From an uncultured Trueperaceae bacterium (GTDB lineage Bacteria; Deinococcota; Deinococci; Deinococcales; Trueperaceae), in NCBI GenBank assembly GCA_937873495.1, contig CALMXZ010000008.1, positions 1 to 64,000 on the forward strand: a stretch of DNA of 64,000 bases, read 5' to 3'. The translations under genes and the position numbers were made by a program. The stretch's first letter is position 1; each line of letters begins with the position of its first letter. The notes below the pieces were generated by a model, which had not been told where the DNA came from, made no database searches, and saw only the letters and a list, made by a program, of their open reading frames with translations. Below are positions 9,801-63,101 of the stretch, piece after piece.

Positions 9801-9904
9801 GGCGGTTCTCCGATCGACGGTCCGGGCAGGCAGCCATGGTCTCGCAGCCCGTACCGAAAGCAACTGGACCCGGCGCCCAACGTGCCCGGGCACCAGCTCT
9901 CATT

Positions 9905-9928
9905 ACCTAGTGATATTATCAGGATTGG
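9905..9928. promoter_or_regulatory. candidate iron-responsive operator, site 2
   Basis: The segment begins ACCTAGT and ends GGATTGG, and contains the perfect 11-bp palindrome TGATATTATCA (9911-9921). Its ACCTAGT and GGATT blocks have the same spacing as in site 1. It lies about 105 bp upstream of the siderophore-interacting protein gene, beside AT-rich sequence that could carry that gene's -10 box. Confidence 0.42.
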
Positions 9929-9978
9929 CCGGAGCTCCGGCCGACATCCCCCAGCGTTCTACCGGCCCCGCTCTCAAT

Positions 9979-10010
9979 CTTGACTATTCTAGTCAGGATT
10001 CGTTTATCAT
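9979..10010 (+). promoter_or_regulatory. promoter with overlapping operator (site 3) of the ECF/chelatase operon
   Basis: A perfect 15-bp palindrome, TGACTATTCTAGTCA (9981-9995), overlaps a -35-like TTGACT (9980-9985). The best -10 candidate is TATCAT (10005-10010), with a long 19-bp spacer. The downstream flank GGATTCG matches site 1. An operator covering the -35 box is the arrangement expected for repression, for example by an iron-loaded regulator. Confidence 0.5.
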
Positions 10011-10063
10011 CTCCGCCGGGACCCGGGGACATGTCGGTCCCAAACGTGAAGGGATCAGTCAGA

Positions 10064-11545
10064 ATGAACATCCGTCGAGTTCTTCGCCTTCGTTGGCTGG
10101 TATACGCCGCTCTAGGCCTGGTTGCGGCATCGCAGGTCGCCGGCGCGCAGTCAGCCCCGCATCGTCCCGTGCTCGAACTCCTCCTCGAAGTTCCCCTCGG
10201 CAACGTCGCCGAGGACCAGGTCCCCGACCTCAGCGAGGCCGGCTGGGCCCTCAAGGTGACGTTCAGCAAACCCATCGTCGTGCCGGACGGCAGCAAGGTC
10301 CTCGTCGTCACCGCCGACGACATGCAGATGTACGACACCAGCGACGGCAAGCTCCTGTGGAAGCAGCCCATCTACGGTGGCATCGACAAGTACGACGCCA
10401 CCAACGAGATCGTCTACCTCTCCGAAGCCGGCTCCTCTGGCCGGTTCAAGGAGCGCTCATACATCTACGCGATCGACGCGGCCAGCGGCGCGGAACTCTG
10501 GCGGTACGACCTGCAGCAGGACGCGCGCCCGTGGCGGCTCGAGAACATGCCAGAAGGCGCGGAGGCCGGTTCCGCCGGCTTCACGAACATCAACGTCCAC
10601 GAGGGCGTGATCTACGCCAAGGTCTCCGACTCGTGGAAAGACGGTTCGGTGACGGATCGCACCGAGGTCCTCGTGGCCCTGGACGATCGAGGCGGCAAGC
10701 TCTGGGAGATCCGGTCACGCGGCTACCCCGGCCTGTTCTCGACGGGTCGCATGGAGTTCCTGGCTGACAAGCTGATCATCGGCTCGTACACCTACGGCGA
10801 CGACACGCACGGGCCTGCCTACGTCCAGGCCTTCGACCTGGCCGACGGCCAGCTGCTCTGGCGCCAGGACCTGCCGTGGGAGCCGCTCAACTACGCTCGC
10901 TCCAACAACGCCTCCGTCACGATCGTCGGCGACAAGGTCGTCGCCTCGACGAGCTTCGGGCGCGTCTACGTCTTCACCGCGGACGGCGAGGCGCTCGGCG
11001 ACTTCCTGGCATGGGAACCCGTCGACACGGGCGAGAACGTGATCACCACCTACGTGCTCGGCGGCAAGGTCGCCGGCTTCGGTGACGACAACGTCGTGAT
11101 CGCCCCGTCCAAGACCGTCATCCAGGGCGCGGCCGCGTCCGCCGTGTCGCCGGTGGAGCACCCGGACGCCAACTCCGTGCTGGTCTACAACCTGCAGGGT
11201 GAGCGGCTATGGAAGTTCGCGCTCGGCGCGCCGCCGCTCAACCTGATCATCAAGGGCGACATCATGCTGCTCGGCACGTCCTCCGAGAGCGCAACGGCCG
11301 GCGGCACCGAGGACACGGGGGTGTACGCGTTCAGCCTCGCCGGCGGGGCGGGCGGCGAGTTCACGGCAGCCGACAGCGCCAACCTGGAGCAGTTCCTCGG
11401 CTTCTTCCGTACCGACGGGATCATCTACGTCTCGGCCCTCGACTCGAGCGCCGACCAGTCCGTCATCGCGGCCGTGTCGTGGCCGACACGCAGCGGCGTC
11501 ACGAAGTCGGGCGAGCACGCCCTCTACATCCTGACCCTGAAGTGA
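10064..11545 (+). CDS. exported PQQ-type beta-propeller repeat protein
   Basis: The 493-residue product carries a signal peptide (basic MNIRRVLRLR, hydrophobic core, cleavage near AGAQ). It then has repeated blade-like units built on the pattern 'ALD..GGKLWE', 'AFDLADGQLLWRQDL' and 'VYNLQGERLWKFAL', typical of PQQ-like propellers without an obvious catalytic site. I use the ATG at 10064 with AAGGGA nearby; an in-frame ATG at 10031 is possible. It is the first gene behind the operator-promoter and ends just before a hairpin, after which the ECF genes begin. A role as an extracytoplasmic binding or assembly scaffold for the transporter is plausible but inferred only from position. Confidence 0.75.
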   Translation: MNIRRVLRLRWLVYAALGLVAASQVAGAQSAPHRPVLELLLEVPLGNVAEDQVPDLSEAGWALKVTFSKPIVVPDGSKVLVVTADDMQMYDTSDGKLLWKQPIYGGIDKYDATNEIVYLSEAGSSGRFKERSYIYAIDAASGAELWRYDLQQDARPWRLENMPEGAEAGSAGFTNINVHEGVIYAKVSDSWKDGSVTDRTEVLVALDDRGGKLWEIRSRGYPGLFSTGRMEFLADKLIIGSYTYGDDTHGPAYVQAFDLADGQLLWRQDLPWEPLNYARSNNASVTIVGDKVVASTSFGRVYVFTADGEALGDFLAWEPVDTGENVITTYVLGGKVAGFGDDNVVIAPSKTVIQGAAASAVSPVEHPDANSVLVYNLQGERLWKFALGAPPLNLIIKGDIMLLGTSSESATAGGTEDTGVYAFSLAGGAGGEFTAADSANLEQFLGFFRTDGIIYVSALDSSADQSVIAAVSWPTRSGVTKSGEHALYILTLK

Positions 11546-11561
11546 TCCGAGCGAAGGCCCC

Positions 11562-11587
11562 GGGGGTAGGCGCTTGCGCCTACCCCC
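11562..11587 (+). terminator. perfect 12-bp hairpin after the beta-propeller gene
   Basis: The arms GGGGGTAGGCGC and GCGCCTACCCCC are separated only by TT and no T-tract follows. Because the next gene starts 16 bp later on the same strand, it may act as an attenuator or RNA-stabilising element rather than a full terminator. Confidence 0.55.
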
Positions 11588-11602
11588 GCCAGTGAGCGGT
11601 CC

Positions 11603-13708
11603 GTGACGGCCGCGAGTGCCAAGCGCCGGTGGCCGTTCGTCGTCGTCACCCTGTCCGTCGTGGTCGCGTTGGTCGTCGCCATCCGCCTACGCCCGCCGGC
11701 CGCCGAGCCGGCGCCGGAGGTCGTCTTCACCACCGAGGACGGGGCGGCCGCCTGGCTGCCCGGCAGCGGGCTCGCGACCGAGGCCGGCAGCGGTGCGCTG
11801 CGCCTCGACACCACGAGCTACGCCCCGCGCACCATCGCCTGGGAGTGGACCGGCACTGGCGCGTGGTTCACCGTTCGGTTCTCCGACGGCAACATCATCC
11901 ACTACTCGTTACCGGGAACCGTGCAGCCCTCCACGACCAACGTCACGTTCCTCGGCCCCACCGGCCTGCCCAGGGTGCGCGTGCCCCGCGTCGTTGTACT
12001 CGACGAGGGCCCCGCGACGGTGGACCTACGCCGCGATTACCGCCGCTTCTTCGGGGCGGGCTCGGCAGAGGCGCGGGACGTGTTCCTCGTCTACGACACC
12101 GGATCTCCCCTGCGCGTCGCCGCGCTGGAGGTGACAACGCACGTCGCGGCCGACCCGGACGCCGAAGCGGGGGGTACTTACGTCCAGGGCGAGCAGGTGA
12201 GCCTGACCTGGCAACTGCCCCAGGGCAACAGGGCGCAGCCGTACCTGCCGGCCGGGACGCCCATCGTGGCGGAGCTGCGGCTTCGCATGTTCAGCGCTAG
12301 AACCGGCCATGGCGAGGTCAGCGTCACGTTCCCGGAGGGCCTGGAGGTGACTCGGCTCGACACTCGCGCCGCTCCTACGACCGACGGCGTGGTCCTCGAC
12401 TTCTCGCTCGCGGCCGGCTATCAAGAGCAGACGTGGTACTTCACCGTCCGCGCCGCAGCGGCGGGCGCCATAGTCGCGCGCCTCAGCGGCGCAAGCCCCG
12501 AACCGCTGGAAGTCGTCACGCGCTATGCGGTCCTCGAACCCGCCGGCCTCGGCACCGCGCTCAAGGTCACGTCTCACGGCGCGTACCCGCTCGGGAGCGG
12601 GTCGGACGCTGGCACGCTGCGCACCCAGCTGCGCAACGACCTGCGGCTGCGCGAAGGGCTGAACAGCAGCCTGCAGCGCCTGTTCGGCGGTCGCGAGAGC
12701 GCCGACGCTCCGGCAGGCGTCGTCAGGGCCGTCCTGTACAACAGCTCCTCCCAAGACCTCGTCCTGCACGTGCGCTATCAGGTCCTCGACGCACGAGGCG
12801 AGGAGATCGAGGCGTTCAGGGGCGAGCACCTCCAGCAGGCGAGCGACGGCGAGAGCGCCCTCCCGGAGGCCGTGCTCCTGCTGCCGGCCGGCCGCTCCGT
12901 CGACTGGCGGGCCCCGCTCTACGCCGACGTCTACAACATCGCTCCCGGAACGTACACGGGGCGGTTCGAGGCGCGCCTGTTCGGCTCGCGACTCCCCCTC
13001 TGGTCGAGCGAGGACGAGCTCAGGGTGCATAAGGACGACCAGCTGCAGCTCCTGGTGACGCTCGTCGGCCTCGTCCTCGCTGCCGGCAGCGTGGCGCTGT
13101 TCGCTCTCAAGCAGCGCTCCTGGCTGGCCGGCATGCGGACGAGCCAGCTCATCCTGCTCGCGCTCATCACCGCCGTGAAGTTCGCGGTCATCGACGTGCC
13201 GTGGACCGTACTCGGCGACGCCATCCGGGCCTTCCTCGGCCCTCTCGGCCCATTCGTCCAGCTCGGCACCGGTATCTTCTCCGACATCCTCCAGGCGCTC
13301 TTCCTGACGGCGCTCATCGTCCTGGTGCCCAAACCGGGCGTCGCCGTCATCTCGGGGCTCGTACGCGTCATCCTCGGCGCCGTCGCTTTCGGAAGCTTCA
13401 ACCCCGTCTCGATCAGTCTCACGCTCTCTTACGCCCTGCTCGCCGACCTGCTGCTGTACGTCTTCGGCTTCACCAGAGGACGCCTGCCGCTTGGTTCGCG
13501 CCGGGCCGCCCTCGCACTCATCGTCATATTTGCCGTCCAGCACGTCTATTCCACGTACACGTTCTATTACACCTGGATGTACATGTACCGGCTCTTCTAC
13601 CCGGACTGGTACATCGGCCTCAACGCGCTCATCTCGGTCGTCTACTCGGCCGTCGGCGCCGTGCTGGGTCTCCTGCTCGGCGCACGCCTCAAGAAGGTGA
13701 TCGACTGA
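11603..13708 (+). CDS. ECF transporter S-component-like membrane protein with large exported N-terminal domain
   Basis: The protein has 701 residues. A single hydrophobic helix (about residues 10-27) precedes about 440 residues of beta-rich exported sequence. From about residue 478 to the C-terminus there are six or seven hydrophobic segments in an S-component-like layout, with an aromatic stretch FYYTWMYMYRLFYPDWY near 655. S components bind the substrate and associate with EcfT, which starts here with a TGATG overlap. Typical S components have about 200 residues, so the exported domain is an unusual fusion that could capture substrate, as extracellular partners do in known haem and cobalamin ECF systems. 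The specificity is unknown. The start is a GTG with no clear ribosome site, so coupling or a different start is possible. Confidence 0.7.
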   Translation: MTAASAKRRWPFVVVTLSVVVALVVAIRLRPPAAEPAPEVVFTTEDGAAAWLPGSGLATEAGSGALRLDTTSYAPRTIAWEWTGTGAWFTVRFSDGNIIHYSLPGTVQPSTTNVTFLGPTGLPRVRVPRVVVLDEGPATVDLRRDYRRFFGAGSAEARDVFLVYDTGSPLRVAALEVTTHVAADPDAEAGGTYVQGEQVSLTWQLPQGNRAQPYLPAGTPIVAELRLRMFSARTGHGEVSVTFPEGLEVTRLDTRAAPTTDGVVLDFSLAAGYQEQTWYFTVRAAAAGAIVARLSGASPEPLEVVTRYAVLEPAGLGTALKVTSHGAYPLGSGSDAGTLRTQLRNDLRLREGLNSSLQRLFGGRESADAPAGVVRAVLYNSSSQDLVLHVRYQVLDARGEEIEAFRGEHLQQASDGESALPEAVLLLPAGRSVDWRAPLYADVYNIAPGTYTGRFEARLFGSRLPLWSSEDELRVHKDDQLQLLVTLVGLVLAAGSVALFALKQRSWLAGMRTSQLILLALITAVKFAVIDVPWTVLGDAIRAFLGPLGPFVQLGTGIFSDILQALFLTALIVLVPKPGVAVISGLVRVILGAVAFGSFNPVSISLTLSYALLADLLLYVFGFTRGRLPLGSRRAALALIVIFAVQHVYSTYTFYYTWMYMYRLFYPDWYIGLNALISVVYSAVGAVLGLLLGARLKKVID

Positions 13709-50530: not shown

Positions 50531-51391
50531 TCATCGGCGCAAAGCTGGGTCGAGGATGTCGCGCAGGTCGTCGGCGATGACGTTGAAAGCCATGCTGATC
50601 ACGAGGATCACCGCGCCTGGCAGGGTGGTGTACCACCACGCTTGCAGGAAGAAGTTGCGGCCCTGGGTGACGAGGGAGCCGAGCTCGGGCGAGGGGGGCG
50701 AAGCGCCCAAACCCAGGAACGAGAAGGACGCGGTCGCCAGGATGGCAACGCTCACGTCCAGGCTCATCTTCACGACCAGCGGCGTGAGCGAGTTTGGCAG
50801 CAGGTGCAACCACATGATGCGCCCCGACCGGGCGCCAAGGGCGCCGGCCGCCTCCACGTACTGCATCTCGCGTAGCTGCAGGATCTGACCGCGGGCGAGG
50901 CGCGCGTACTGCGGCCACCAGACCAAGGCGAGCGCGATCATGGCGTTCGTGAGGCCCGGGCCTATGACGGTGACGATGGCCATCGCGACTATCAACGACG
51001 GGAACGCTATGAACATGTCCGACACGCGCATGAGGACGCCGTCGACCCAGCCGCCGAGGTAGCCGGACAGCACGCCGATCGGGATGCCGACGAGCGCCGT
51101 CAACAGCACGACGCCGAGCGCCGAGCCAAGAGACAGCCTGACGCCGTACACCGCCCGGCTGTACAGGTCGCGCCCCAACTCGTCCGTGCCGAACCAGGCG
51201 ACGGCGGAGGGCGGCTTGAGGCGCTGCGCCATGTTGATGGTGAAGGTCTGATGGTTGGCGAACAGCGAGGGAGCCACCATCACGGCGACCGCGAGCAGGA
51301 CGATGGTCAGCGACACCCAGCCGAGCGGGCTGACGTGGCGGGTGACGCGGCGCCAGCGGGGGACGCGGACGGTGGTGGAGACGGAGCTCAC
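50531..51391 (-). CDS. Dpp/Opp-type ABC permease, DppC-like (third pair)
   Basis: The 286-residue permease starts with GTG at 51391 overlapping the DppB TGA (GTGA). After a basic N-terminus comes an anchor (LGWVSLTIVLLAVAVMVAPSL), the phrase GTDELGRDLYSRAVYGVRLSL and the EAA loop AAGALGARSGRIMWLHLLPN. An in-frame extension upstream runs through DppB in another frame and is not real. It precedes the M24 peptidase gene. Confidence 0.93.
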   Translation of the reverse strand: MSSVSTTVRVPRWRRVTRHVSPLGWVSLTIVLLAVAVMVAPSLFANHQTFTINMAQRLKPPSAVAWFGTDELGRDLYSRAVYGVRLSLGSALGVVLLTALVGIPIGVLSGYLGGWVDGVLMRVSDMFIAFPSLIVAMAIVTVIGPGLTNAMIALALVWWPQYARLARGQILQLREMQYVEAAGALGARSGRIMWLHLLPNSLTPLVVKMSLDVSVAILATASFSFLGLGASPPSPELGSLVTQGRNFFLQAWWYTTLPGAVILVISMAFNVIADDLRDILDPALRR

Positions 51392-52395
51392 TCGAGCCTC
51401 ACGCGGGGGTCGATGACCGTGTAGCTGAGGTCGACGAGCAGGTTGACGAGCGCGTAGATGATGGTCGCCCATACCGTGAAGCCCATCACGACCGGGAAAT
51501 CGAGCTGCTTGAGGGCCGTGAACGCGTAGCGCCCCACGCCGGGCCACGCGAAGACCGTCTCGGTCAGCACCGCGCCGCTGAACATCTGCCCGAGGCGAAG
51601 GCCGATGACCGTGACGATGGGTACTGCGGCGTTACGCAGCGCGTGCTTCCACAGCACGACGCTCTCGCGCAGGCCCTTGCTGCGCGCGGTGCGCACGTAG
51701 TTGCTCGAGAGCACGTCGAGCAAGCTCGAGCGCGTCATGCGGGCGACGATCCCGAGCGTGAGGGTAGCAAGCGCCACGGCGGGCAGGACGAGGTGTATGA
51801 GGCTCGACTGCAGCGTCTGCCAGTTGCCGGCGATCAGGCTGTCGAGGGTGTAGAAGCCGGTCACGTTCGGCGGCGGGGAGAGGACCGTCGCCAACCTCCC
51901 GCCTGCCGGGAACCACCCGAGCCACCGGAAGAAGACGAGCTGAAGCACGAGGCCGAGCCAGAACACCGGCATGGACAGCCCGAGGAGCGACACGAAACGC
52001 GCGAGCTGATCGACGACGCCCCCGCGGAAGAACGCCGAGCCGACCCCGAGGACGAACCCGAAGACGACGGATATCACCAGGCTCGGCACCAGCAGCTCGA
52101 CCGTCGCCGGTATGAACTTGCCGAGGTCGCCGGCCACGGGCGCGCGGCTCACGATCGAGGTGCCGAGGTCGCCGCGCAGCATGGCGGAGACGTACCGGCC
52201 GTACTGCACGAGCAGCGGTTGATCCAGCCCCCGCTCGCGGCGGTAGTTCGCGACCTGCGCCTCCGTGGCGTCGGGGCCGAGCGCGGCGCGCGCGGGGTCG
52301 GCCGGCACCAGGTTGGCCAGCACGAACGTGACGGTCACCGCCCCGAGGACGGTGAGCGCCATGAAGACGAGGCGGCGTAGGAGGAACGTCGTCAT
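51388..52395 (-). CDS. Dpp/Opp-type ABC permease, DppB-like (third pair)
   Basis: The 335-residue protein has the DppB N-terminus MTTFLLRRLVFMALTVLGA, the family block NLVPADPARAALG and the EAA-type loop YVRTARSKGLRESVVLWKHALRNA. It is longer than its paralogues because of a roughly 25-residue insert around LSPPPNVTGFYTLDS in a loop. The ATG at 52395 fits the family's usual N-terminus; an in-frame ATG 5 codons upstream (52410) abuts the hairpin and neither has a clear ribosome site. Confidence 0.92.
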   Translation of the reverse strand: MTTFLLRRLVFMALTVLGAVTVTFVLANLVPADPARAALGPDATEAQVANYRRERGLDQPLLVQYGRYVSAMLRGDLGTSIVSRAPVAGDLGKFIPATVELLVPSLVISVVFGFVLGVGSAFFRGGVVDQLARFVSLLGLSMPVFWLGLVLQLVFFRWLGWFPAGGRLATVLSPPPNVTGFYTLDSLIAGNWQTLQSSLIHLVLPAVALATLTLGIVARMTRSSLLDVLSSNYVRTARSKGLRESVVLWKHALRNAAVPIVTVIGLRLGQMFSGAVLTETVFAWPGVGRYAFTALKQLDFPVVMGFTVWATIIYALVNLLVDLSYTVIDPRVRLE

Positions 52396-52410
52396 GTCGA
52401 CCGGCTGCAT

Positions 52411-52437
52411 GGGTGGGCGTTAGCAACGCGCCCACCC
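52411..52437. terminator. 9-bp hairpin between binding-protein and DppB genes
   Basis: GGGTGGGCG (52411-52419) pairs with CGCCCACCC (52429-52437) around a 9-nt loop. It begins 15 bp after the binding-protein stop and abuts the DppB start region. Confidence 0.6.
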
Positions 52438-52451
52438 CGTTCAGCCACTGC

Positions 52452-54032
52452 TCAGTTCGTCCGGTACAGGGGGTAGGCGCGGATGGCCGGGTACCACGTC
52501 GGGTGGATGTAGAAGCCGCCGATGTCGGAGCGCAGCGTGTAGATCATGCGCTGAGTACCGATGTTGACCTGCGGCGCGTCCTCGACGATCAGGTCGACGG
52601 CGGCCCGGTAGCTCTCCTGGCGCGTGGCTTCGTCGACGGCCAGGGCACCCGCCGTGATCAGGTCGTCGACGGCCTGGTTGTGATAGAAGCCCTGGTTGCG
52701 GCCGAGGCCGCCCTGGGCATCGGAGTGATACATGTACCAGAGGTAGGCGTAGGCGTCGGGCATGCGCGGCGGCGTGTAGAGGAAGTTGGCCATGCGGAAG
52801 TTCTCGTCGGACGCACTGCGCTCGCTGGTGCCCCACGCCGTGATGGCCCGCACGAAGGCCGGGAAGTCCTGCGCGATGATGTTGACCGTCACGCCGATCT
52901 GACCGAGGTAGGCCTGCAGCACCTGCGCGGCCAGCTCCTGGGGCTGATCGCCGGTCGTGAAGTAGACGTCGAGCGTCATGTTCGACTGCCCGGCCTCGGC
53001 GAAGAGCCGCTTGGCCTCGTCGAGATCGAAGGTCGCGTACGGGATCTCCGGCTTGTAGCCGCCCAGGAACTCGCTCGGGACCGGACCGTCGGTCGTGGTG
53101 AAGGACCCGCCGGACGCCTCGAGGAACGCCGCCTGGTCGAAGGCGTAGTTGATGGCCTTGCGCACGCGCGGGTCGGCGGTGGGGCCTGCCGCCGCGTTGA
53201 GATTGAGGTAGAGGACCCTCACGCCGCCGTCGCGCTCGATGACCGAGATGGCCGGGTTGGCGCGAAGCGAATCGAGGGCGTCGCTCGGTACCTGCTCGGC
53301 GATGTCGACGTCGCCACGCTCGAGCATGAGCTGGGCCGTGGCCATCTCCGGCACGAGGAGCATCACGGAGCGCGAGAAGTGCGGGCCTTCCCAGCCGCCC
53401 CAGTAAGGTTTGAAGGCCTCGAGCACGAAGCGGTCGCCACGGACGAGTTCGGCCAGCACGTACGGGCCGGTGCCGGCCGTGTTACCGGCCGCCCAGCTCT
53501 CCGCCCACTTGTCGTCGGCGGTAGCGCCGGCCTCGAACGCCGTCGGGCTGACGATGCCGACCATCGAGACGGCCTGGAGGAACGGCGGGCCGCCGGGACG
53601 GATCGTCATGCGCACGGTGAGGTCGTCGACCGCCTCGACGCTGTCGAGGTAGGCGATGGCCCAGTACGGGCCCTTCTTGATCTCGCGCACGCGCTCGAAG
53701 CTGTACACGACGGCTTCCGAGGTGAGGGACGTGCCGTCGTGGAACTCGACGCCGGGGCGCAGGTGGAACGTGTAGACCGTCTGGTCGTCGGAGACGTCGA
53801 CGGACTCCGCCAGCACGGGCGACAGCTCGAAGGTGGGCCCCTGCAGGCCGACGAGGGGCTCGTAGATGTTCTCGAGGAACGGCACGGCGCGCGACGAGGC
53901 CGTGTGCGGATCGACGGTCTCGACGTTGCCGGACAAGGCGACGGTGAGCGTCGTCGGGTCGCCGGCGGCCAGGGCCAACGAGACGAGGCCCAACGTCAAC
54001 GCAAGCAACAACCTACCCAAACGTTCAACCAC
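52452..54032 (-). CDS. ABC transporter solute-binding protein, family 5 (fourth copy)
   Basis: The 526-residue protein has a short signal peptide (VERLGRLLLALTLGLVSLALA, cleavage near AG) and the family pattern NVETVDPHTASS, YTFHLRPGVEFHDGTSL and DPRVRKAINYAFDQA. The start is a GTG at 54032 with a perfect GGAGGTG ribosome site 7 nt upstream. It opens the operon with DppB, DppC and the M24 peptidase. The divergent haem-copper oxidase operon shares the 265-bp upstream region, but no shared regulation is visible. Confidence 0.93.
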   Translation of the reverse strand: MVERLGRLLLALTLGLVSLALAAGDPTTLTVALSGNVETVDPHTASSRAVPFLENIYEPLVGLQGPTFELSPVLAESVDVSDDQTVYTFHLRPGVEFHDGTSLTSEAVVYSFERVREIKKGPYWAIAYLDSVEAVDDLTVRMTIRPGGPPFLQAVSMVGIVSPTAFEAGATADDKWAESWAAGNTAGTGPYVLAELVRGDRFVLEAFKPYWGGWEGPHFSRSVMLLVPEMATAQLMLERGDVDIAEQVPSDALDSLRANPAISVIERDGGVRVLYLNLNAAAGPTADPRVRKAINYAFDQAAFLEASGGSFTTTDGPVPSEFLGGYKPEIPYATFDLDEAKRLFAEAGQSNMTLDVYFTTGDQPQELAAQVLQAYLGQIGVTVNIIAQDFPAFVRAITAWGTSERSASDENFRMANFLYTPPRMPDAYAYLWYMYHSDAQGGLGRNQGFYHNQAVDDLITAGALAVDEATRQESYRAAVDLIVEDAPQVNIGTQRMIYTLRSDIGGFYIHPTWYPAIRAYPLYRTN

Positions 54033-54297: not shown

Positions 54298-54822
54298 ATG
54301 GAGATCCAGGGCAAGATCCTCCTCACCTACGGCGCGCTCACAGCACTGACGCTCGCCGTCTTCGTGGTCGTGGCGGCGTCATCACGAGGCGCCCCCAAGC
54401 CTTACGCCGAGGTGCAGCCCCGCGGCTACGGCGTGAGGCGGGTGTGGTTCTGGTCTCTGTTGGCCGTGCTGATCGTGGCTTTCGGGCTGTCCGGGCGGCT
54501 GACCCCCTACTCGCAGGCGGGGAGCGTCGCAGGCGAAGCGGTCAGCTTCCCCATCGTGGCGCGGCAGTACGTCTTCGAGAACATGCCGGAGGTGGTGCCG
54601 TACGGCGTGCCGGTGGTGTTCAACCTCACGTCCATCGACGTCAACCACGGCTTCGCCGTCTACGACTCCCAGGACCGGATCGTCGGCCAGGTGCAGGCCA
54701 TGCCCGGCTACGCCAACGACCTGCGCGTGACGTTCACGGAGAAGGGGAAGTACATCGTGCGCTGCCTGGAGTTCTGCGGCATCAACCACGCCTTCATGCA
54801 GGGCAGCTTCGAGGTGAGATGA
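54298..54822 (+). CDS. haem-copper oxidase subunit II with CuA site (ba3-type)
   Basis: The 174-residue protein is close to Thermus ba3 subunit II: two N-terminal transmembrane helices (residues 6-24 and about 45-62) and an exported cupredoxin domain. All CuA ligands are in place: H117 in VNHGF, then C156-x3-C160-x3-H164-x2-M167 in CLEFCGINHAFM. It receives electrons from a cytochrome c and passes them to subunit I. The ATG at 54298 is preceded by GGAAGGGAAG. The intact CuA site shows that the complex uses cytochrome c, not quinol, regardless of what subunit I reduces. The gene is the first of the operon. Confidence 0.93.
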   Translation: MEIQGKILLTYGALTALTLAVFVVVAASSRGAPKPYAEVQPRGYGVRRVWFWSLLAVLIVAFGLSGRLTPYSQAGSVAGEAVSFPIVARQYVFENMPEVVPYGVPVVFNLTSIDVNHGFAVYDSQDRIVGQVQAMPGYANDLRVTFTEKGKYIVRCLEFCGINHAFMQGSFEVR

Positions 54823-54823
54823 G

Positions 54824-56341
54824 ATGAGCACGTCAGCCGACGACTCCCCCGCGCGCCGCATCATGGCCCTGTACCTGGCGACCGGTCTCGCGCTGGTCGT
54901 CCTGCTCATGCTGGTCGGCGTCCTCATGCGCATGTCGCAGGCCGGCTGGATCCGCCTCACGTCCGTCGACTTCTACGCCCTGATGACGCTGCACGGCGCC
55001 GGCATGATCGCCGCCCTCGTGCTGTGCGGCATGGGCGGCATCTGGTACCTCATCCGCCGCGAGGTCGCCATGGCGGCGAGCCTCGCGCTCTGGTCATACG
55101 GCGTGACCGTCGGCGGCGTGCTGCTCGTCGCCGTCGCCGCGGCGTTCGGCAAGTTCGGGGCGGCCTGGACCTTCCTCTACCCGCTGCCCTTCCTTAACCC
55201 GACCTGGCCGGCCTGGTCGATCGGCACCTTCCTGATCGGCCTTACGCTCATCACCCTGGGCTGGTCGGCTTGGTGCATCCAGGTCCTCGAGGCCGTGCTG
55301 CGCGGCTTCGGGGGCTTCCGCGGCGTGCTCGGCATCGACGCCGTCCTCCGGCCGAAGGCGTTCGCGCTCTCAGGCCGCAAGCTGCCCCCGCCACAGGTGC
55401 TGCCGGCCTTCGTCATCGCCTTCGACGGCCTCCTCGCGGCCGCGGCGGCCAGCCTCCTCGGCGTGGCGCTGTTCGTCCACTGGCTCGACCCGGCCGTGCC
55501 GCTCGACGCACTCTGGGCGAAGAACATCACCTACTTCTTCGGCCACGACCTCGCGAACTTCATCATCTACATGCTCATCGCGCAGGTCTACGTCGGCCTG
55601 CCGGCCTACACGCGCCGCCCATGGAAGAACTCGACCATCCTCACCCTCGGCTGGTGGGGCACGCTCGTCTTCTTGCTCCTCGCCTTCCCGCACCACCTGT
55701 ACATGGACTTCGCGCAGCCCGTCTGGATCCAGTACCTCGGCCTCGGCGCCTCCTACCTGTCGTCCGTCCCGGTGGCGGTCGTCACCGTGTTCGGCGGCCT
55801 CCTGCTCGTCTGGCGCTCCGGCATGCGCTGGGGCCTCGGCTCGCTCTTCATGTACGCCGGCATGGCCGGCTGGATCCTGGGCGGCATCGGCGCGCTGCTC
55901 GACGCCACCATCCACTTCAACATCCACCTCCACAACACCCTCTGGGTTCCGGCCCACTTCCACACCTACCTGCTTGGCGCCTCGTTCCTCTTCGCGCTCG
56001 GCTGGGTCTTCGCCATGCTCGAGGCGCGCAGCCAGGACCCGACGCGGCCCGCCATGCGCTGGGCCATCGGCGTCACCGTGTTGGGCGGCATCGCGCTCCT
56101 CGTGGCAACCTTCTACGTGGCCGGAGCGGCCAGCGTGCCCCGCCGCTACGACGTCGAACCGGACCCCGGTCCGCTGCTGGCGGGGTGGGGCTCGGTCGGC
56201 GCGATCGTCCTGCTGATCGGACTGGCCATCGCGACCGTCGAGGGGGCAAGGCTCTGGCGCGGGCTCAGGCGAACGCGGACGGCCATCGAATGGCCGTGGT
56301 CGCCAGAACAGGCAACGCAGCCCGGTGGAGGCGCGAGATGA
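54824..56341 (+). CDS. haem-copper oxidoreductase subunit I lacking the His-Tyr cross-link tyrosine
   Basis: The 505-residue polytopic protein carries the full set of metal ligands: H57 (TLHGAGM) for low-spin haem, CuB ligands H241 and H290-H291 (FPHHLYMD), and H378/H380 in HNTLWVPAHFHTY for the haems. In A- and B-family oxidases H241 is followed four residues later by the tyrosine that is cross-linked to it (HPxVY); here the segment reads H241-D-L-A-N245, with Asn in the tyrosine position and Asp instead of Pro. Haem-copper enzymes without this tyrosine include nitric-oxide reductases. It follows subunit II by 1 bp and overlaps the cytochrome c gene (ATGA at 56338). Oxygen versus NO reduction cannot be decided from sequence. 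Confidence 0.9.
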   Translation: MSTSADDSPARRIMALYLATGLALVVLLMLVGVLMRMSQAGWIRLTSVDFYALMTLHGAGMIAALVLCGMGGIWYLIRREVAMAASLALWSYGVTVGGVLLVAVAAAFGKFGAAWTFLYPLPFLNPTWPAWSIGTFLIGLTLITLGWSAWCIQVLEAVLRGFGGFRGVLGIDAVLRPKAFALSGRKLPPPQVLPAFVIAFDGLLAAAAASLLGVALFVHWLDPAVPLDALWAKNITYFFGHDLANFIIYMLIAQVYVGLPAYTRRPWKNSTILTLGWWGTLVFLLLAFPHHLYMDFAQPVWIQYLGLGASYLSSVPVAVVTVFGGLLLVWRSGMRWGLGSLFMYAGMAGWILGGIGALLDATIHFNIHLHNTLWVPAHFHTYLLGASFLFALGWVFAMLEARSQDPTRPAMRWAIGVTVLGGIALLVATFYVAGAASVPRRYDVEPDPGPLLAGWGSVGAIVLLIGLAIATVEGARLWRGLRRTRTAIEWPWSPEQATQPGGGAR

Positions 56342-57294
56342 CGCGCGCGCGGAAGACCGGTGCCAAGAAGAGCGGCTCTCCCACCGGCCGCCCGAAGCCG
56401 TTCACGGTAGTCACGGTTCTCTTCGTACTGATCGGGTACTTCTCGATCGTGGTTGCATGGCTGCACCTGGGGCTGCCCTCCCCCGAGCACAGCATCAAGG
56501 ATCACCACCTCCAGCACTTGTGGTTCCTCATCGGGGGCGGCCTGTGGGGCATCGCGCTCGCCCGCTGGCTCGCCAACCGGCGTCCAGGCGACCGGCAGGG
56601 CGTCTGGCTCGTCCCGGCCCTCCTGGCGCCCATGGCGGCGATGTTCCTCATGTGGCCGTCGGCCTACCCGTACGTCGAGGCGCGCCCGCTCCTCCACTCC
56701 TCCATGCACGCCTTGTTCATCGGGCTCGGCGCCCTGACGACCTTCGCCGGCTACCGGTACACGCGCGTGGTCGGGTGGTTGCTGGGCGGCTCGCTGGCGG
56801 TCATGGCGTGGCTGGCCGCGTTCTTCTTCGGGGTGACGCCGCGGCAGGACCCCGCGGTGACCGCCATCCTCGGCGCGCGACCGGCGCCGGCACCCACGGC
56901 CTCGGTCGAGGGCCAGAAGGTGTTCGACCAGATCTGCGCGTCATGCCACATGACGACGGGCGCGGGCCTACCCGGCGCCTTCCCGCCGTTGGCCGGGCAC
57001 TTCCCCGAGCTCCTGGAGGCGGGCGGCAGGGATTACGTGAAGCAGGTCGTGCTCTACGGGCTGCAGGGCGCCATCCTCGTTGGAGGGCAGACGTACAACA
57101 GCGTCATGCCCCCTTGGCAGCAGCTGAGCGACCAGGAGATCGCCGACGCGCTCAACTACGCCGCCACCGCGTGGGGCAACGAGCTCCCAGACGGGGCGCA
57201 ACCGTTCGAGGCAAGCGAGGTGGCGGCCGCGCGCGGCCCCGCGCTCAGCGCCCAGCAGGTGTACGAGGCGCGCGGGCGGTTGGAGCTGCCCTGA
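56338..57294 (+). CDS. membrane-bound cytochrome c subunit of the haem-copper oxidoreductase
   Basis: The 318-residue protein has five hydrophobic segments between residues 24 and 165, then an exported cytochrome c domain. The haem c motif is C200-A-S-C-H204 and the probable distal ligand is M257 in NSVMPPW. Fused transmembrane-cytochrome c subunits supply electrons to CuA in related oxidases and in some nitric-oxide reductases; here the membrane part is larger than a simple anchor and could replace subunit III. The ATG overlaps the stop of subunit I with GGAGG about 8 nt upstream. A strong hairpin follows at 57393. Confidence 0.9.
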   Translation: MTRARKTGAKKSGSPTGRPKPFTVVTVLFVLIGYFSIVVAWLHLGLPSPEHSIKDHHLQHLWFLIGGGLWGIALARWLANRRPGDRQGVWLVPALLAPMAAMFLMWPSAYPYVEARPLLHSSMHALFIGLGALTTFAGYRYTRVVGWLLGGSLAVMAWLAAFFFGVTPRQDPAVTAILGARPAPAPTASVEGQKVFDQICASCHMTTGAGLPGAFPPLAGHFPELLEAGGRDYVKQVVLYGLQGAILVGGQTYNSVMPPWQQLSDQEIADALNYAATAWGNELPDGAQPFEASEVAAARGPALSAQQVYEARGRLELP

Positions 57295-58612: not shown

Positions 58613-58682
58613 TCAACGGTCTTCGCAGGCTCAGCCGACGTGCCAGCGGATGCGCCGGCACGCACACCATCAGGAGGAACAC

Positions 58683-60158
58683 ATGTTAAGGAAGCTCGCA
58701 GCCACACTGCTCCTCGCCGCGCTAGCCGTCGCGTGGAGCCAGCCCGCCCCGACCCGCGCCGTCATCGCGCAAGGCGTCGACATCGAGACGATGGATCCGA
58801 CCTTCGCCTCCAGCACGGCCACCTGGAACGTGCTGCATCACGTCTTCGAGCCGCTGATGCTACGCGACGCCGACATGAACCTGCAGCCCGTCCTCGCCCT
58901 CTCCTGGGAGTCCGTTGACGAGCTGACGTGGGAGTTCAAGCTCCGCGAAGGCGTTAGCTTCCATAGCGGCGCGCCCTTCAACGCCGAGGCCGTCAAGTTC
59001 ACGCTCGAGCGCATGTTCAGCCCGAACGTCACGACGATCCACCGCGCGGTGCGCGACATCCCCCTCGACCACGTCGAGGTCGTCGACGACTACACCGTTC
59101 GCATCGTCACGAAGACGCCGACCGTCCTGATGCCGCACTTCCTGCGCACGGTCCTGATCCTCGATCCGACCGTCTACGGCTCCAACGAGCCCGTGATCGA
59201 CCGCGCCTCTGGAACGGGCCCATACACGTTCGCGTCCTGGGTGCGCGACAGCGGCGTCGAGCTCAGGGCCAACGCCGACTACTGGAACGGCGCGCCGGCC
59301 ATCGACCAGCTCCTCTTCCGCCCGATCCCCGAGAACTCGACCCGCGTCGCGGAACTCCTCACCGGCGCCGTCGACCTCATCGTCAACGTGCCGCCCGACG
59401 ACCTGCCGCAGATCGAGACCGCCCGCACCCGTTCGCTGATCTCGCAGGGCGGCCGCGACGTGTTCATCGGCCTGCGCGCCGACAAGGCGCCTTTCGACGA
59501 CGTGCGGGTGCGCCAGGCCGTCAACTACGCCGTCGACCGCCAGGCCATCAACGACGCCATCCTCGGCGGCTACGGCGAGCTCTACGGCTCGGTCGTCATG
59601 CCACCCAACAACGCTCCCGAAGTCGAACCGTACCCGTACGACCCGGAACGCGCCAAGGCGCTCCTGACCGAAGCCGGGGTGCCCCGTGGGCTCGAGATCA
59701 CGCTCCAGACCCCGAACGGTCGCTACCTCAAGGACGTCGAGGCCGCCCAGGCCGTCGCCGCCTACCTGAACCAGGTCGGCTTCAACGCCAAGGTCGAGGT
59801 CCTCGAATGGTCCGTCTTCTCGGACGCCTGGCTCAACAAGAAGACGAAGGAGATGTTCCTCCTCGGGCTCGGCGGCTGGTTCGACGGCCAAGGCGAGCTC
59901 ACCTGGCTCCGCGACGTGACGAGCAACACCGGCTGGATCAACGAGGAGTTCGAGAGCGGCTTCCAGCGGCTCGCCACCACGTTCGACCTGGACGAGCGCG
60001 CTGCGCTGATCCAGGACCTCGACCGCCTCGCGTTCGAGGAAGCGCCGTGGCTCTTCCTCTGGCGCCAGCCGTCCCTCTACGGCGCCTCCAACCGCCTCAA
60101 CTGGGACCCTCGCCGCGACGAGTACATCTTCCTCTGGGGCGCGAGCATTGACCAGTAA
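58683..60158 (+). CDS. ABC transporter solute-binding protein, family 5 (fifth copy)
   Basis: The 491-residue protein has a signal peptide (LRKLAATLLLAALAVAWS, cleavage near SQP) and the family pattern IETMDPTFASSTATW, WEFKLREGVSFHSGAPF and DDVRVRQAVNYAVDRQAI. The ATG at 58683 has a perfect AGGAGG site. It is the only binding-protein gene here not followed by a hairpin: the next gene starts inside its last codons. It feeds the DppBC pair at 61306-63101. Confidence 0.94.
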   Translation: MLRKLAATLLLAALAVAWSQPAPTRAVIAQGVDIETMDPTFASSTATWNVLHHVFEPLMLRDADMNLQPVLALSWESVDELTWEFKLREGVSFHSGAPFNAEAVKFTLERMFSPNVTTIHRAVRDIPLDHVEVVDDYTVRIVTKTPTVLMPHFLRTVLILDPTVYGSNEPVIDRASGTGPYTFASWVRDSGVELRANADYWNGAPAIDQLLFRPIPENSTRVAELLTGAVDLIVNVPPDDLPQIETARTRSLISQGGRDVFIGLRADKAPFDDVRVRQAVNYAVDRQAINDAILGGYGELYGSVVMPPNNAPEVEPYPYDPERAKALLTEAGVPRGLEITLQTPNGRYLKDVEAAQAVAAYLNQVGFNAKVEVLEWSVFSDAWLNKKTKEMFLLGLGGWFDGQGELTWLRDVTSNTGWINEEFESGFQRLATTFDLDERAALIQDLDRLAFEEAPWLFLWRQPSLYGASNRLNWDPRRDEYIFLWGASIDQ

Positions 60159-61281
60159 CGCGTCGGGACCGCTCGAGCGGTTCGCCGCCGGTGGCCTCGG
60201 CACGGTCGAGGAGATCGCGGCGTGGCTTGAGGAGCGGGGGCTGCAGGTCGGCAAGCTGGGCGAGAACTTCGCCCAGCAGCCGCTCCTCTGCGTGCAGACC
60301 GGCATGGGCTCTGCCAGGCCGATCGTCGTGACCGCCGGAGCCCATGCCGGCGAGCCCGCCGGCGTCCTGGCCGCGCTGCAGCTCCTCGTCGAGCACGACT
60401 TCCAGTCCCCGACCTACTTCGTGCCGCTACGCGACCCCTTCGCCTGGCAAGGGTTCGCCGGCGCGCTCAAGCATGCGTCGCCAACGCTCCAACTGCCGGA
60501 CCAGCTCGACCACGCCGCCGTGCGAACGCTCCTCCTGGCGCACGGCGCCTGGCACGCCGAGTACGGCGACCTGCTCGTGACCGAGATCGGTGGCATCGTC
60601 TTCGCGACTATGCCACCACAGGCCCCGCCCATCGGCCCGCGGCAACTGGAACAAGCCGTCAACCAGGCCTTGGCGGGCGACCGAGCGCTGGCGGAACGGA
60701 CGCTCGGCAAGCGCATCGTCTTCCCGTCCAACTCAGGGCCGACCGCGGAGGGCGTGCGGGACTTCGACCGGGCGTTCAGCGCCACCATCCGGACCCCCGG
60801 CATGGTGGCCGACATGAACCGCGGCTTCGGCGGCCCGGAAGAGCCCAACGAGGTGCGCCTCCTCCGTGAGTTGGTCGACCGGCTCGACCCGGGCCTGGTC
60901 CTCGATCTTCACGAGGGTCAGGGAAGCACCTACTACGCGTTCGTGGGCGCCGACTCCCCGCACGAGGAGACGTACGCACTCACCCGCGCCGCCCTCGACG
61001 CCATGGGTCAGGACGGCGTGCCGCCCGTCACGCTCGCGGACCTCGAGAGGTCCTTCGGGCCGCGGATCCGCGACGGGCTGTCCGAACCGACACCCGGCAT
61101 GCTGGTCGGCCGGGTCCAGAGCACGGCGCTGCGCGGCACCTCGTTCGGCAACTACTGCGACCGGTTCTGCGCCGCCATCACCTTCGAGACCGGCCGCTGG
61201 GCACCGCTGGCGGAGCGGGTCCACCGGCAGCTGCTCGGAGCGAGGGCCGTCCTGCGCGCTCACGAGACCGGCGGCCGGTGA
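60148..61281 (+). CDS. M14/aspartoacylase-like zinc hydrolase
   Basis: The 377-residue protein has the metal site of M14-type carboxypeptidases and deacylases: H66-x-x-E69 in GAHAGEPAG, H255 in DLHEGQG and a candidate catalytic glutamate E347 in TFETGRW. It lacks the typical M14 signal peptide and has a lengthy insert rich in alanine between residues 90 and 190. Substrates of this group include C-terminal amino acids of peptides and N-acyl amino acids. The start is a TTG overlapping the binding-protein stop by 11 bp, with GGGG upstream; a later start is possible. Context suggests that it trims or deacylates the imported ligand before the cyclase-like enzyme acts. Confidence 0.78.
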   Translation: MTSNASGPLERFAAGGLGTVEEIAAWLEERGLQVGKLGENFAQQPLLCVQTGMGSARPIVVTAGAHAGEPAGVLAALQLLVEHDFQSPTYFVPLRDPFAWQGFAGALKHASPTLQLPDQLDHAAVRTLLLAHGAWHAEYGDLLVTEIGGIVFATMPPQAPPIGPRQLEQAVNQALAGDRALAERTLGKRIVFPSNSGPTAEGVRDFDRAFSATIRTPGMVADMNRGFGGPEEPNEVRLLRELVDRLDPGLVLDLHEGQGSTYYAFVGADSPHEETYALTRAALDAMGQDGVPPVTLADLERSFGPRIRDGLSEPTPGMLVGRVQSTALRGTSFGNYCDRFCAAITFETGRWAPLAERVHRQLLGARAVLRAHETGGR

Positions 61282-61305
61282 AGCCGGAGAGCGGATACTA
61301 GCCCG

Positions 61306-62220
61306 ATGCTGAGGATGTTGGTCTCCCGCCTGGGTCAAGGGGTCATCGTCGTCGTCCTCGTGACCCTGTTCGTCTTCCTCACGACGTTCCTGACGGGCGA
61401 CCCGGCGGGCCTCATGCTCGGCGAAGGCGCCACGCAAGAACAGATCCAGGCGTTCCGCCAACGCATGGGCTTCGACCGACCCCTCGTCACGCAGTACGGC
61501 TCGTTCCTGGTGCGCGCGGTCCGCGGCGATCTCGGGGTATCGCTCTACTTCCAGCAGTCGAACATGCAGCTGTTCGCCGAACGACTGCCCGCGACCTTGC
61601 AGCTCGCGTTCCTGAGCCTGGCGCTCGGCACCGCGCTGGCGATCCCGGCCGGGCTCATCGCCGGCGCTCGCCGCAACACGTGGATCGACTCGCTCGTCAC
61701 CAACGCCGCCCTGGTCGGACAGGCCGCCCCCGTGTTCTGGGTCGGAAGCCTGGCCATCATGGTGTTCGCCGTCATGCTCGGCTGGCTGCCCGCCTCGGGC
61801 CGGGGCACGCCCGCGCACCTGGTCCTTCCAACGCTCACGCTGGCGCTCTTCCCCCTCGCCTACAACACGCGCCTCATCCGATCGTCGACCCTCGAGGTGC
61901 TCGGCCAGGACTATGTTCGCACCGCCCGCGCCAAAGGCCTCCCCTACTACGTCGTGCTGTTCAAGCACGTACTCAGGAACGCCATCGGGCCGGCGCTCAC
62001 GGTGATCGGCATCCAGCTCGGCACGTTCGTCGGTGGTTCCGTGATCACGGAGACGGTGTTCGCGTGGCCCGGTGTCGGTCGCTTGGCGATACAAGCGATC
62101 CTCACCAAGGACTTCCCGCTGCTGCAGACCATCGTTGCGTTCCTCGCCGTCGGGTTCGTGCTCGTCAACGTGCTCGTCGACGTGGCCTACTCGCTCGTCG
62201 ACCCCAGGGTGCGGTACTGA
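61306..62220 (+). CDS. Dpp/Opp-type ABC permease, DppB-like (fourth pair)
   Basis: The 304-residue permease starts MLRMLVSRLGQGVIVVVLVT, has TGDPAGLMLGEGATQEQ, the EAA-type loop YVRTARAKGLPYYVVLFKHVLRNA and ITETVFAWPGVGRLAIQ. Its stop overlaps the start of DppC (TGATG). It is 24 bp after the zinc hydrolase gene. No ATPase gene accompanies it. Confidence 0.94.
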   Translation: MLRMLVSRLGQGVIVVVLVTLFVFLTTFLTGDPAGLMLGEGATQEQIQAFRQRMGFDRPLVTQYGSFLVRAVRGDLGVSLYFQQSNMQLFAERLPATLQLAFLSLALGTALAIPAGLIAGARRNTWIDSLVTNAALVGQAAPVFWVGSLAIMVFAVMLGWLPASGRGTPAHLVLPTLTLALFPLAYNTRLIRSSTLEVLGQDYVRTARAKGLPYYVVLFKHVLRNAIGPALTVIGIQLGTFVGGSVITETVFAWPGVGRLAIQAILTKDFPLLQTIVAFLAVGFVLVNVLVDVAYSLVDPRVRY

Positions 62221-63101
62221 TGGGCATCACGAGCACCGTCCCCGCAGCCGGTCGCCGCCGCGGCGGAGCGCGCAGGCTCCTGCGCCACAAGTCCGGGCTG
62301 GTCGGGCTCGTCGTGCTGCTGCTGCTCATCGTGTTCAGCGCGAGCATCGGGCTGTTCACGAGCACCGACCCGGCAGCCATCTCTCTTACGAGCCGCCTCA
62401 AGCCGCCCATGACGACGGCCGGCGGCGCCTATCACCTCTTGGGCACCGACGCCCTCGGACGCGACGTGCTCGTCCGCATGGCGTACGGCGCGCGGATCTC
62501 TCTCGTCATCGCCTTCTCGGCGGTCGCCATCTCCCTGGCCATCGGCGTGCTGATAGGCCTGCTGGCCGGCTACTACGGCGGCTGGCTCGACTCGCTGCTC
62601 ATGCGCGTCACCGATGCCCAACTGGCCTTCCCCTTCATCCTCCTGGCGCTCACGGTCCTCGCCGCCCTCGGCTCGGGACTACCGCAACTGATCCTCGTCC
62701 TTGGGATCGGGCGGTGGGACGTGTTCGCGCGCGTCGTCCGCGGCGAGGTCCGCTCGCTCATGCAGCGCCAGCAGATCGAGGCGTGCAGGGCGCTCGGAGT
62801 CGGTGACTGGCGGGTGATGGCGAAGCATCTGCTGCCCAACGTCCTCAACACGGTCCTGGTGGTGGCCTCGTTCTCGGTGGCGACGAACATCCTCACCGAG
62901 TCGGCGCTCTCCTTCCTCGGCCTGGGGGTAGACCCGAGCATCCCGACCTGGGGATCGATGCTCGCCGAGGGGCGCGACTACATGCGCACGGGGTGGTGGC
63001 TGACTGCCCTGCCCGGCGCGGCTATCATGGTCACCGTCTTGGCCATCAACTCGATCGGCGACTGGCTCCGCGACGCGCTCGACCCTCGCCAGGCCGATTA
63101 G
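62220..63101 (+). CDS. Dpp/Opp-type ABC permease, DppC-like (fourth pair)
   Basis: The 293-residue permease starts with ATG at 62220 within the DppB stop. After a basic N-terminus comes the anchor GLVGLVVLLLLIVFSASIGL, the phrase GTDALGRDVLVRMAYGARISL and the EAA loop ACRALGVGDWRVMAKHLLPN. It completes the fourth channel of the window. The RpiR-type regulator follows after 30 bp and is probably in the same transcript. Confidence 0.94.
   Translation: MGITSTVPAAGRRRGGARRLLRHKSGLVGLVVLLLLIVFSASIGLFTSTDPAAISLTSRLKPPMTTAGGAYHLLGTDALGRDVLVRMAYGARISLVIAFSAVAISLAIGVLIGLLAGYYGGWLDSLLMRVTDAQLAFPFILLALTVLAALGSGLPQLILVLGIGRWDVFARVVRGEVRSLMQRQQIEACRALGVGDWRVMAKHLLPNVLNTVLVVASFSVATNILTESALSFLGLGVDPSIPTWGSMLAEGRDYMRTGWWLTALPGAAIMVTVLAINSIGDWLRDALDPRQAD

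What the first reader, a model, noticed from the sequence alone, without database searches (positions are those of the whole stretch)
54824..56341. Haem-copper subunit I with Asn in place of the cross-linked active-site tyrosine
All haem and CuB histidines are present, but the HPxVY motif reads H241-D-L-A-N245. The tyrosine is essential for O2 reduction in A- and B-family oxidases, and families without it (cNOR and recently proposed NOR families such as eNOR, sNOR, gNOR and nNOR) reduce or are thought to reduce NO. With a CuA subunit II and a membrane cytochrome c this may be an NO reductase taking electrons from cytochrome c. I cannot say which named family it joins.
Basis: partly seen in the sequence, partly recalled or inferred. 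Interest (0 to 1): 0.7.

Follow-up and report, generated by a model that had tools for sequence, protein, structure and literature searches.

The report
sNOR-type NO reductase with tethered cytochrome
A Deinococcota bacterium carries a relative of cytochrome oxidase whose oxygen-splitting tyrosine is an asparagine; it sits in a large, hardly studied group that includes the proposed nitric oxide reductase sNOR, and its probable electron donor is built into a third membrane subunit that resembles a copper-insertion protein.

Summary
In detail: ORF 54824-56341 encodes a 505-aa haem-copper subunit I with all six metal/haem histidines and Asn245 (AAC) in place of the cross-linked tyrosine. The Asn is invariant in a clade spread over about eight bacterial phyla (53 of 53 aligned; tree support 100/100). 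The literature-named sNOR of Ruegeria (Silicibacter) pomeroyi is nested inside this clade, and published tables give Asn as the sNOR residue. No replacement tyrosine was found by sequence.

The operon is subunit II (complete CuA site), subunit I, and a fusion of a 5-helix membrane domain with a Thermus-c552-type cytochrome. The 5-helix domain is CtaG-like (hhalign E 4e-7 to 3e-4), has eight invariant residues including five histidines, and occurs in relatives stand-alone or fused to subunit I. Orf1 of classical sNOR operons is CtaG-like too.

NO reduction is the best reading (own nirK and norCB; NO-stress gene scdA/ric beside four relatives), but activity is unproven. A nirK link fails in Eremiobacterota, and an O2-reductase role has been argued for sNOR. 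Whether this is "nNOR" could not be tested.

The parts
54298..54822 (+). Subunit II (NorS-like), 174 aa: two N-terminal hydrophobic segments, then a CuA cupredoxin domain with H117, C156, E158(O), C160, H164, M167
   Evidence: COX2 Pfam 37 bits; best PDB matches are Thermus ba3 CuA domains, E 1.5e-15; ligand spacing read directly; GGAAGGGAAG ribosome-binding-like sequence before the ATG
54824..56341 (+). Subunit I (NorY-like haem-copper catalytic subunit), 505 aa, 12 transmembrane helices
   Evidence: COX1 Pfam 157 bits; AlphaFold2 pLDDT 85.4, pTM 0.88, 12 long helices; Foldseek PDB haem-copper oxidases TM 0.79, E 1e-12
55544..55558 (+). Codons H241-D-L-A-N245: CuB ligand and Asn replacing the cross-linked tyrosine
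   Evidence: invariant in 53 homologues
56338..57294 (+). Third subunit, 318 aa: CtaG-like 5-helix domain fused to a mono-haem c552-type cytochrome; ATG overlaps the subunit I stop (ATGA)
   Evidence: Cytochrom_C Pfam 38 bits; overlap read at 56338-56341; gene order conserved across Deinococcota, Planctomycetota, Verrucomicrobiota, Eremiobacterota
56407..56835 (+). CtaG-like 5-helix domain (residues ~24-166), invariant H56 H57 H60 M105 P107 Y110 H120 H124
   Evidence: conserved in 62 of 62 copies; hhalign to CtaG probability 93%, E 3.6e-7, controls E 0.17 or worse; helices with pLDDT mostly above 85
56899..57291 (+). Class I cytochrome c domain (CASCH at residues 200-204), homologue of Thermus thermophilus cytochrome c552
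   Evidence: phmmer against PDB 2fwl/1c52, E 2e-34

Best explanation
A three-subunit, cytochrome-c-fed nitric oxide reductase of the sNOR type (broad Asn clade), from a deep lineage of its own. Proposed path: electrons reach the tethered c552-type cytochrome domain, pass to CuA in subunit II, then the low-spin haem (H57/H380), then the haem-CuB site (H378; H241, H290, H291), where 2 NO + 2 e- + 2 H+ give N2O + H2O. Asn245 leaves the site without the redox tyrosine that full four-electron O2 splitting uses. The CtaG-like membrane domain, with its five invariant histidines and one methionine predicted on the periplasmic side, is proposed to load or hold copper for CuB/CuA as a permanent part of the enzyme. 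In this host it would act beside NirK and a cNOR-type NorCB; in hosts without NirK, as NO detoxification. Shown here: gene structure, metal ligands, invariant Asn, clade membership, CuA, c552 homology, CtaG homology and its shuffling. Inferred: electron path, NO as substrate, role of the CtaG-like domain.
For: Asn invariant. Clade support 100/100 with R. pomeroyi sNOR inside and B-family + eNOR outside (quick tree). Literature: Asn is the sNOR and CuANOR/bNOR residue (PMC8756737); the NO-reducing B. azotoformans qCuANOR type I has Asn, and a type II has a short 12-helix subunit I, a two-helix subunit II and Asn (PMC3475470), which is the architecture seen here. Most B-type K-channel residues are lost, as predicted for sNOR. 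Cytochrome domain = c552. Own genome: NirK over cut-off in an Rrf2 - nirK - FGE/NirV-like - SCO cluster, and norC-norB, the same pairing as N. europaea norCBQD + norSY (PMC4940428). All six Deinococcota genomes with the gene have NirK, against 2 of 20 without. G009 has NirK and no other NOR-type haem-copper enzyme. NO-stress gene scdA/ric lies beside the gene in four phyla (L038, L082, L022, L075; 0.14-0.58 expected). An A-family-type oxidase is present in all 28 Eremiobacterota genomes that have the gene.
Against: No activity data for this lineage. In 118 Eremiobacterota genomes the gene is in 28, NirK in 4, both in 1, so there is no general link to denitrification. The Deinococcota nirK association is phylogenetically confounded. 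The scdA/ric result was found post hoc. sNOR itself has been argued to be a high-affinity O2 reductase (PMC6967387). Only one literature-named sNOR could be placed in the tree; its branch is long and the root inside the Asn clade is unresolved.
Confidence: 0.6

Rival explanations
1. A high-affinity terminal oxidase: despite the missing tyrosine the enzyme reduces O2 at low oxygen, feeding on c552 through CuA, as proposed for N. europaea sNOR.
For: sNOR transcription rises 2.7- to 10.8-fold under O2 limitation in N. europaea and the authors favour this (PMC6967387). c552-type cytochrome and CuA are oxidase-like parts. 27 of 28 Eremiobacterota genomes with the gene lack NirK.
Against: The cross-linked tyrosine is absent and invariantly replaced, with no replacement at the C-family position. 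A characterised Asn enzyme of a related kind reduces NO (PMC3475470). Never the only haem-copper enzyme in the genomes inspected.
Confidence: 0.2
2. An NO-detoxifying reductase rather than a denitrification enzyme: same chemistry as the best explanation (so not exclusive of it), but serving aerobes exposed to NO from neighbours, uncoupled from NirK.
For: Distribution in Eremiobacterota without NirK and neighbouring scdA/ric NO-damage-repair genes; Rrf2-family regulators beside the Ruegeria and Parasedimentitalea operons.
Against: In the window's own family it co-occurs with NirK in 6 of 6 genomes, which fits a respiratory role there.
Confidence: 0.4
3. A different substrate or non-catalytic role (for example nitrite, sensing, or electron bypass).
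For: No biochemistry exists for this lineage; the fused CtaG-like domain with an invariant His/Met set is unusual.
Against: All catalytic metal ligands and the CuA site are intact and conserved.
Confidence: 0.1

Closest known systems
sNOR (norSY-senC-orf1), e.g. Nitrosomonas europaea, Ruegeria (Silicibacter) pomeroyi
   Same: Asn in place of the tyrosine; CuA subunit II; short subunit I; same well-supported clade; CtaG-like partner (orf1 matches CtaG); coexists with cNOR as in N. europaea
   Different: 33-36% identity to R. pomeroyi; separate deep lineage; no SCO/SenC in the operon; CtaG-like domain fused to a c552-type cytochrome
qCuANOR type I / bNOR of Bacillus azotoformans
   Same: Asn at the same position; CuA subunit II; characterised NO reductase; SCO and a multi-helix protein in the operon
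   Different: long ba3-like 13-helix subunit I; bNOR sequence not available here for the tree
qCuANOR type II of B. azotoformans (BAZO_04705-04710)
   Same: short 12-helix subunit I, two-helix CuA subunit II, Asn, adjacent 4-5-helix protein suggested as third subunit
   Different: separate SenC/SCO; third protein not fused to a cytochrome; sequence not available here
B-family ba3 oxidase of Thermus and its donor cytochrome c552
   Same: fold, CuA, c552-type donor
   Different: Tyr237 replaced by Asn; K-channel residues lost; donor tethered to the membrane in the same operon
CtaG (Pfam PF09678, caa3 oxidase assembly factor)
   Same: four conserved histidines in two HxxxH motifs aligned with H56/H60 and H120/H124; hhalign E 4e-7
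   Different: five helices, not the full CtaG length; below Pfam's cut-off; fused to cytochrome c or to subunit I

Membership tests
sNOR (broad) | Asn replaces the cross-linked tyrosine | tested here: met
   published residue in PMC8756737 Table A4
sNOR (broad) | forms one clade with a literature-named sNOR, outside B-family oxidases and eNOR | tested here: met
   UFB/SH-aLRT 100/100; only one named sNOR (R. pomeroyi) in the tree
sNOR (broad) | cupredoxin (CuA) subunit II adjacent | tested here: met
sNOR (broad) | no conserved B-type K proton channel | tested here: met
   S309, T312, Y244 equivalents not conserved; only Y248 (Y256 here) kept
sNOR (narrow, norSY-senC-orf1) | operon with SenC/SCO and separate orf1 | tested here: not met
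   window operon is sII-sI-CtaG-like/cyt c; a SCO gene lies instead in the nirK cluster
sNOR (broad) | NO reductase activity | not testable with these tools
   needs biochemistry; unproven for most sNOR
nNOR | match to the published nNOR model or clade | not testable with these tools
   Murali et al. 2024 not held; no nNOR sequence available
bNOR / qCuANOR type I | long ba3-like subunit I with 13 helices | tested here: not met
   505 aa, 12 helices against PMC3475470
eNOR | Gln at the tyrosine position | tested here: not met
   Asn; eNOR rows form their own clade with the B-family rows
gNOR | Asp at the tyrosine position | tested here: not met
   Asn; residue from PMC8756737
cNOR/qNOR | NorB glutamate motif (HxWVEG) | tested here: not met
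   HDLAN; the genome has a separate NorB with HYWVEGVWE
A/B-family O2 reductase | HPxVY cross-linked tyrosine on helix VI | tested here: not met
C-family (cbb3) O2 reductase | cross-linked tyrosine on helix VII, about 6 residues before the HH pair (position from memory) | tested here: not met
   positions 282-287 hold V/L/I/T/F/A/N/M/P/W, no Tyr
CtaG superfamily (5-helix domain) | two conserved HxxxH motifs | tested here: met
CtaG superfamily (5-helix domain) | Pfam PF09678 curated cut-off | tested here: not met
   best E 0.02 for an actinobacterial copy; window copy not listed

The most novel reading that the evidence does not exclude
The window belongs to an undescribed family of Asn-site haem-copper NO reductases in which a CtaG-like copper module is a permanent subunit, fused either to the electron-donor cytochrome or to the catalytic subunit, and which serves mostly aerobic, non-denitrifying soil bacteria as an NO sink.
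Probability: 0.35. Interest if true: 0.65.

Novelty: new variant of a known kind. Interest (0 to 1): 0.5.

Why it matters
NO reductases decide how much N2O microbes release. General annotation models score this protein only weakly as a cytochrome oxidase (NCBIfam 66 bits against a 671-bit cut-off), so an Asn-site family found in Eremiobacterota, Planctomycetota, Verrucomicrobiota, Acidobacteriota, Actinomycetota and Deinococcota could be miscounted as O2 respiration. The shuffling of a CtaG-like domain between subunit I, the cytochrome and a stand-alone gene offers a testable function for orf1 of the classical sNOR operon: a copper-handling module that may be a structural subunit. The open question of whether sNOR reduces NO or O2 becomes testable with a compact three-gene cassette that carries its own donor.

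Tried and rejected
Alternative tyrosine for the cross-link: none at the C-family position; Y249, Y256, Y293 and Y382 are conserved in the 53-row set, but Y249 and Y256 lie 8 and 15 residues along the helix from H241, Y293 is Leu in R. pomeroyi and Y382 follows the haem ligands.

General nirK link: held in Deinococcota (6 of 6 against 2 of 20), failed in Eremiobacterota (1 of 28).

Fold search of the third subunit: no Foldseek hit with E under 0.4. VIA-align gave a helical-bundle match to transhydrogenase at Z 10.5, under the tool's own trust level for helical bundles. A missing match does not show a new fold.

First hhalign of the 5-helix domain against single CtaG and orf1 sequences was inconclusive (E 7e-4 and 6e-3); a CtaG profile built from about ten sequences settled it. 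Orf1 and the 5-helix domain match CtaG separately but not each other convincingly.

Upstream regulatory motif: no conserved FNR/NsrR-like site in the 300 bp upstream of the operon across relatives.

Murali et al. 2024 not held.

Full report
Observation. The 505-aa ORF at 54824-56341 is a haem-copper subunit I (Pfam COX1 157 bits; NCBIfam CtaD only 66 bits against a 671-bit cut-off). It carries H57, H241, H290, H291, H378 and H380, and Asn245 where A- and B-family oxidases have the tyrosine cross-linked to the first CuB histidine. The AlphaFold2 model has pLDDT 85.4, pTM 0.88 and twelve long helices; its best PDB neighbours are haem-copper oxidases at TM 0.79.

Distribution. The window lies in a Deinococcota genome: a 90%-identical copy is on a contig named Deinococcota bacterium KLAP159. 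Only 6 of 111 genomes of the phylum have the gene, all in one family. A scan of 84,980 species found 500 stretches encoding relatives. The best 80 came from Planctomycetota, Eremiobacterota (Vulcanimicrobiota in the tool's taxonomy), Verrucomicrobiota, Acidobacteriota, Actinomycetota, Bacillota and Bacteroidota at 36-90% identity. Asn245 is invariant in the 53 aligned rows.

Family. Published tables give Asn for sNOR and CuANOR (bNOR), Gln for eNOR, Asp for gNOR and Glu for cNOR/qNOR, and list sNOR in Betaproteobacteria, Silicibacter, Deinococcus and Geobacillus (PMC8756737). The Ruegeria (formerly Silicibacter) pomeroyi megaplasmid holds an Asn enzyme in the order sII - sI - SCO - membrane protein - formate/nitrite transporter, which I take to be the reported one. 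In a careful tree the Asn clade has 100/100 support against B-family oxidases and eNOR. The R. pomeroyi and Thermomicrobium sequences are inside it with Actinomycetota and Bacteroidota (94/97). The window groups with Planctomycetota, Verrucomicrobiota, Acidobacteriota and Eremiobacterota (96/99). The order of these deep branches is unresolved (quick tree). So the window is sNOR-type in the broad sense, in a deep lineage of its own. The fourth proposed name, nNOR, could not be tested because the defining paper is not held and papers that mention it describe no residues.

No replacement tyrosine. At helix VII positions 282-287 no tyrosine occurs in 53 sequences; position 288 is Tyr in 44 but Phe in the window. 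Y249 and Y256 are invariant but 8 and 15 residues along the same helix from H241. Y249 is not found in B-family or eNOR rows and may be a lineage-specific proton or structural residue (inference). K-channel equivalents S309, T312 and Y244 of Thermus ba3 are not conserved (ba3 numbering from memory), as predicted for sNOR.

Operon and third subunit. Subunit II (54298-54822) has two hydrophobic N-terminal segments and a complete CuA site, as in B. azotoformans qCuANOR type II (PMC3475470). The third gene overlaps the subunit I stop by ATGA. Its C-terminal domain is a homologue of Thermus cytochrome c552 (E 2e-34; one hit, PDB 2fwl, also contains a cytochrome oxidase subunit II chain). Its N-terminal 5-helix domain is the new part. 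The same domain occurs (i) fused before a cytochrome c in Deinococcota, Planctomycetota, Verrucomicrobiota and some Eremiobacterota, (ii) as a separate small protein in others and in Bacillota, and (iii) fused to the C-terminus of subunit I in Actinomycetota, followed by a one-helix cytochrome c gene (cytochrome-fused against subunit-I-fused copies hhalign 99.5%, E 2e-22). H56, H57, H60, M105, P107, Y110, H120 and H124 are invariant in 62 of 62 copies. Against a CtaG profile of about ten sequences the three groups score E 3.6e-7, 1.7e-6 and 2.7e-4, and orf1 of Ruegeria/Bacteroidota operons scores E 2.6e-7; unrelated membrane proteins score 0.17 or worse. CtaG's own conserved histidines (two HxxxH motifs) align with H56/H60 and H120/H124. 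Because the cytochrome domain must be periplasmic, these residues fall on the periplasmic side (inference from helix count). Fusion to the catalytic subunit and to the donor suggests a stoichiometric, copper-handling third subunit rather than a passing assembly factor (inference).

Physiology. The genome encodes NirK above the curated cut-off, in a cluster Rrf2 regulator - nirK - FGE-domain protein - SCO, and a norC-norB pair. Among 26 genomes, the six with the gene all have NirK, against two of twenty without; G009 has NirK and no other NOR-type haem-copper enzyme. Outside the phylum the picture differs: of 118 Eremiobacterota genomes 28 have the gene, 4 have NirK and one has both. All 28 also have another, A-family-scoring haem-copper enzyme, so this is an accessory enzyme. 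ScdA/RIC proteins (DUF542 + hemerythrin; NO-damage repair by general knowledge) lie beside the gene in an acidobacterium (93 nt upstream), a Bacteroidota, a Planctomycetota and an actinobacterium; 0.14-0.58 would be expected by chance, though this was noticed after looking.

Verdict. The Asn by itself is a known hallmark, so the main novelty is the deep lineage and the CtaG-like/cytochrome third subunit. The NO-or-O2 question for sNOR is still open in the literature (PMC6967387).

Noticed in passing
L113 (G114, Solirubrobacterales bacterium 67-14), ORF 1372-3078: A-family-like subunit I whose CuB and haem histidine motifs are lost (WQHLSYIFFTGVYMS, WTQNML, no HxHFH): a degenerate haem-copper protein that keeps a long open frame.
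   Followed up: no
L115 (Bacteroidetes bacterium OLB10), eNOR-type subunit I: Carries GHSSQQ (eNOR glutamine) but HFK instead of HFH at the low-spin haem ligand.
   Followed up: no
L008 and L011 (genome G005): One relative of the window's genus has two divergent copies of the sII-sI-CtaG/cyt c operon.
   Followed up: partly
L168 (G000:C10), approx. 8950-12491: The genome's nirK cluster: divergent Rrf2-family regulator, nirK, FGE-sulfatase-domain (NirV-like) protein, SCO.
   Followed up: partly
L038, L082, L022, L075: ScdA/RIC-type NO-damage-repair genes beside Asn haem-copper operons in four phyla.
   Followed up: partly
L012 (Thermomicrobium roseum plasmid) and L014/L013 (Ruegeria, Parasedimentitalea plasmids): Formate/nitrite transporter genes sit in the sNOR-type operons of unrelated phyla.
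   Followed up: partly
window 50531-54032 (-) and 58650-63101 (+): Two peptide/nickel-type ABC transporter clusters flank the operon; no functional link seen.
   Followed up: no
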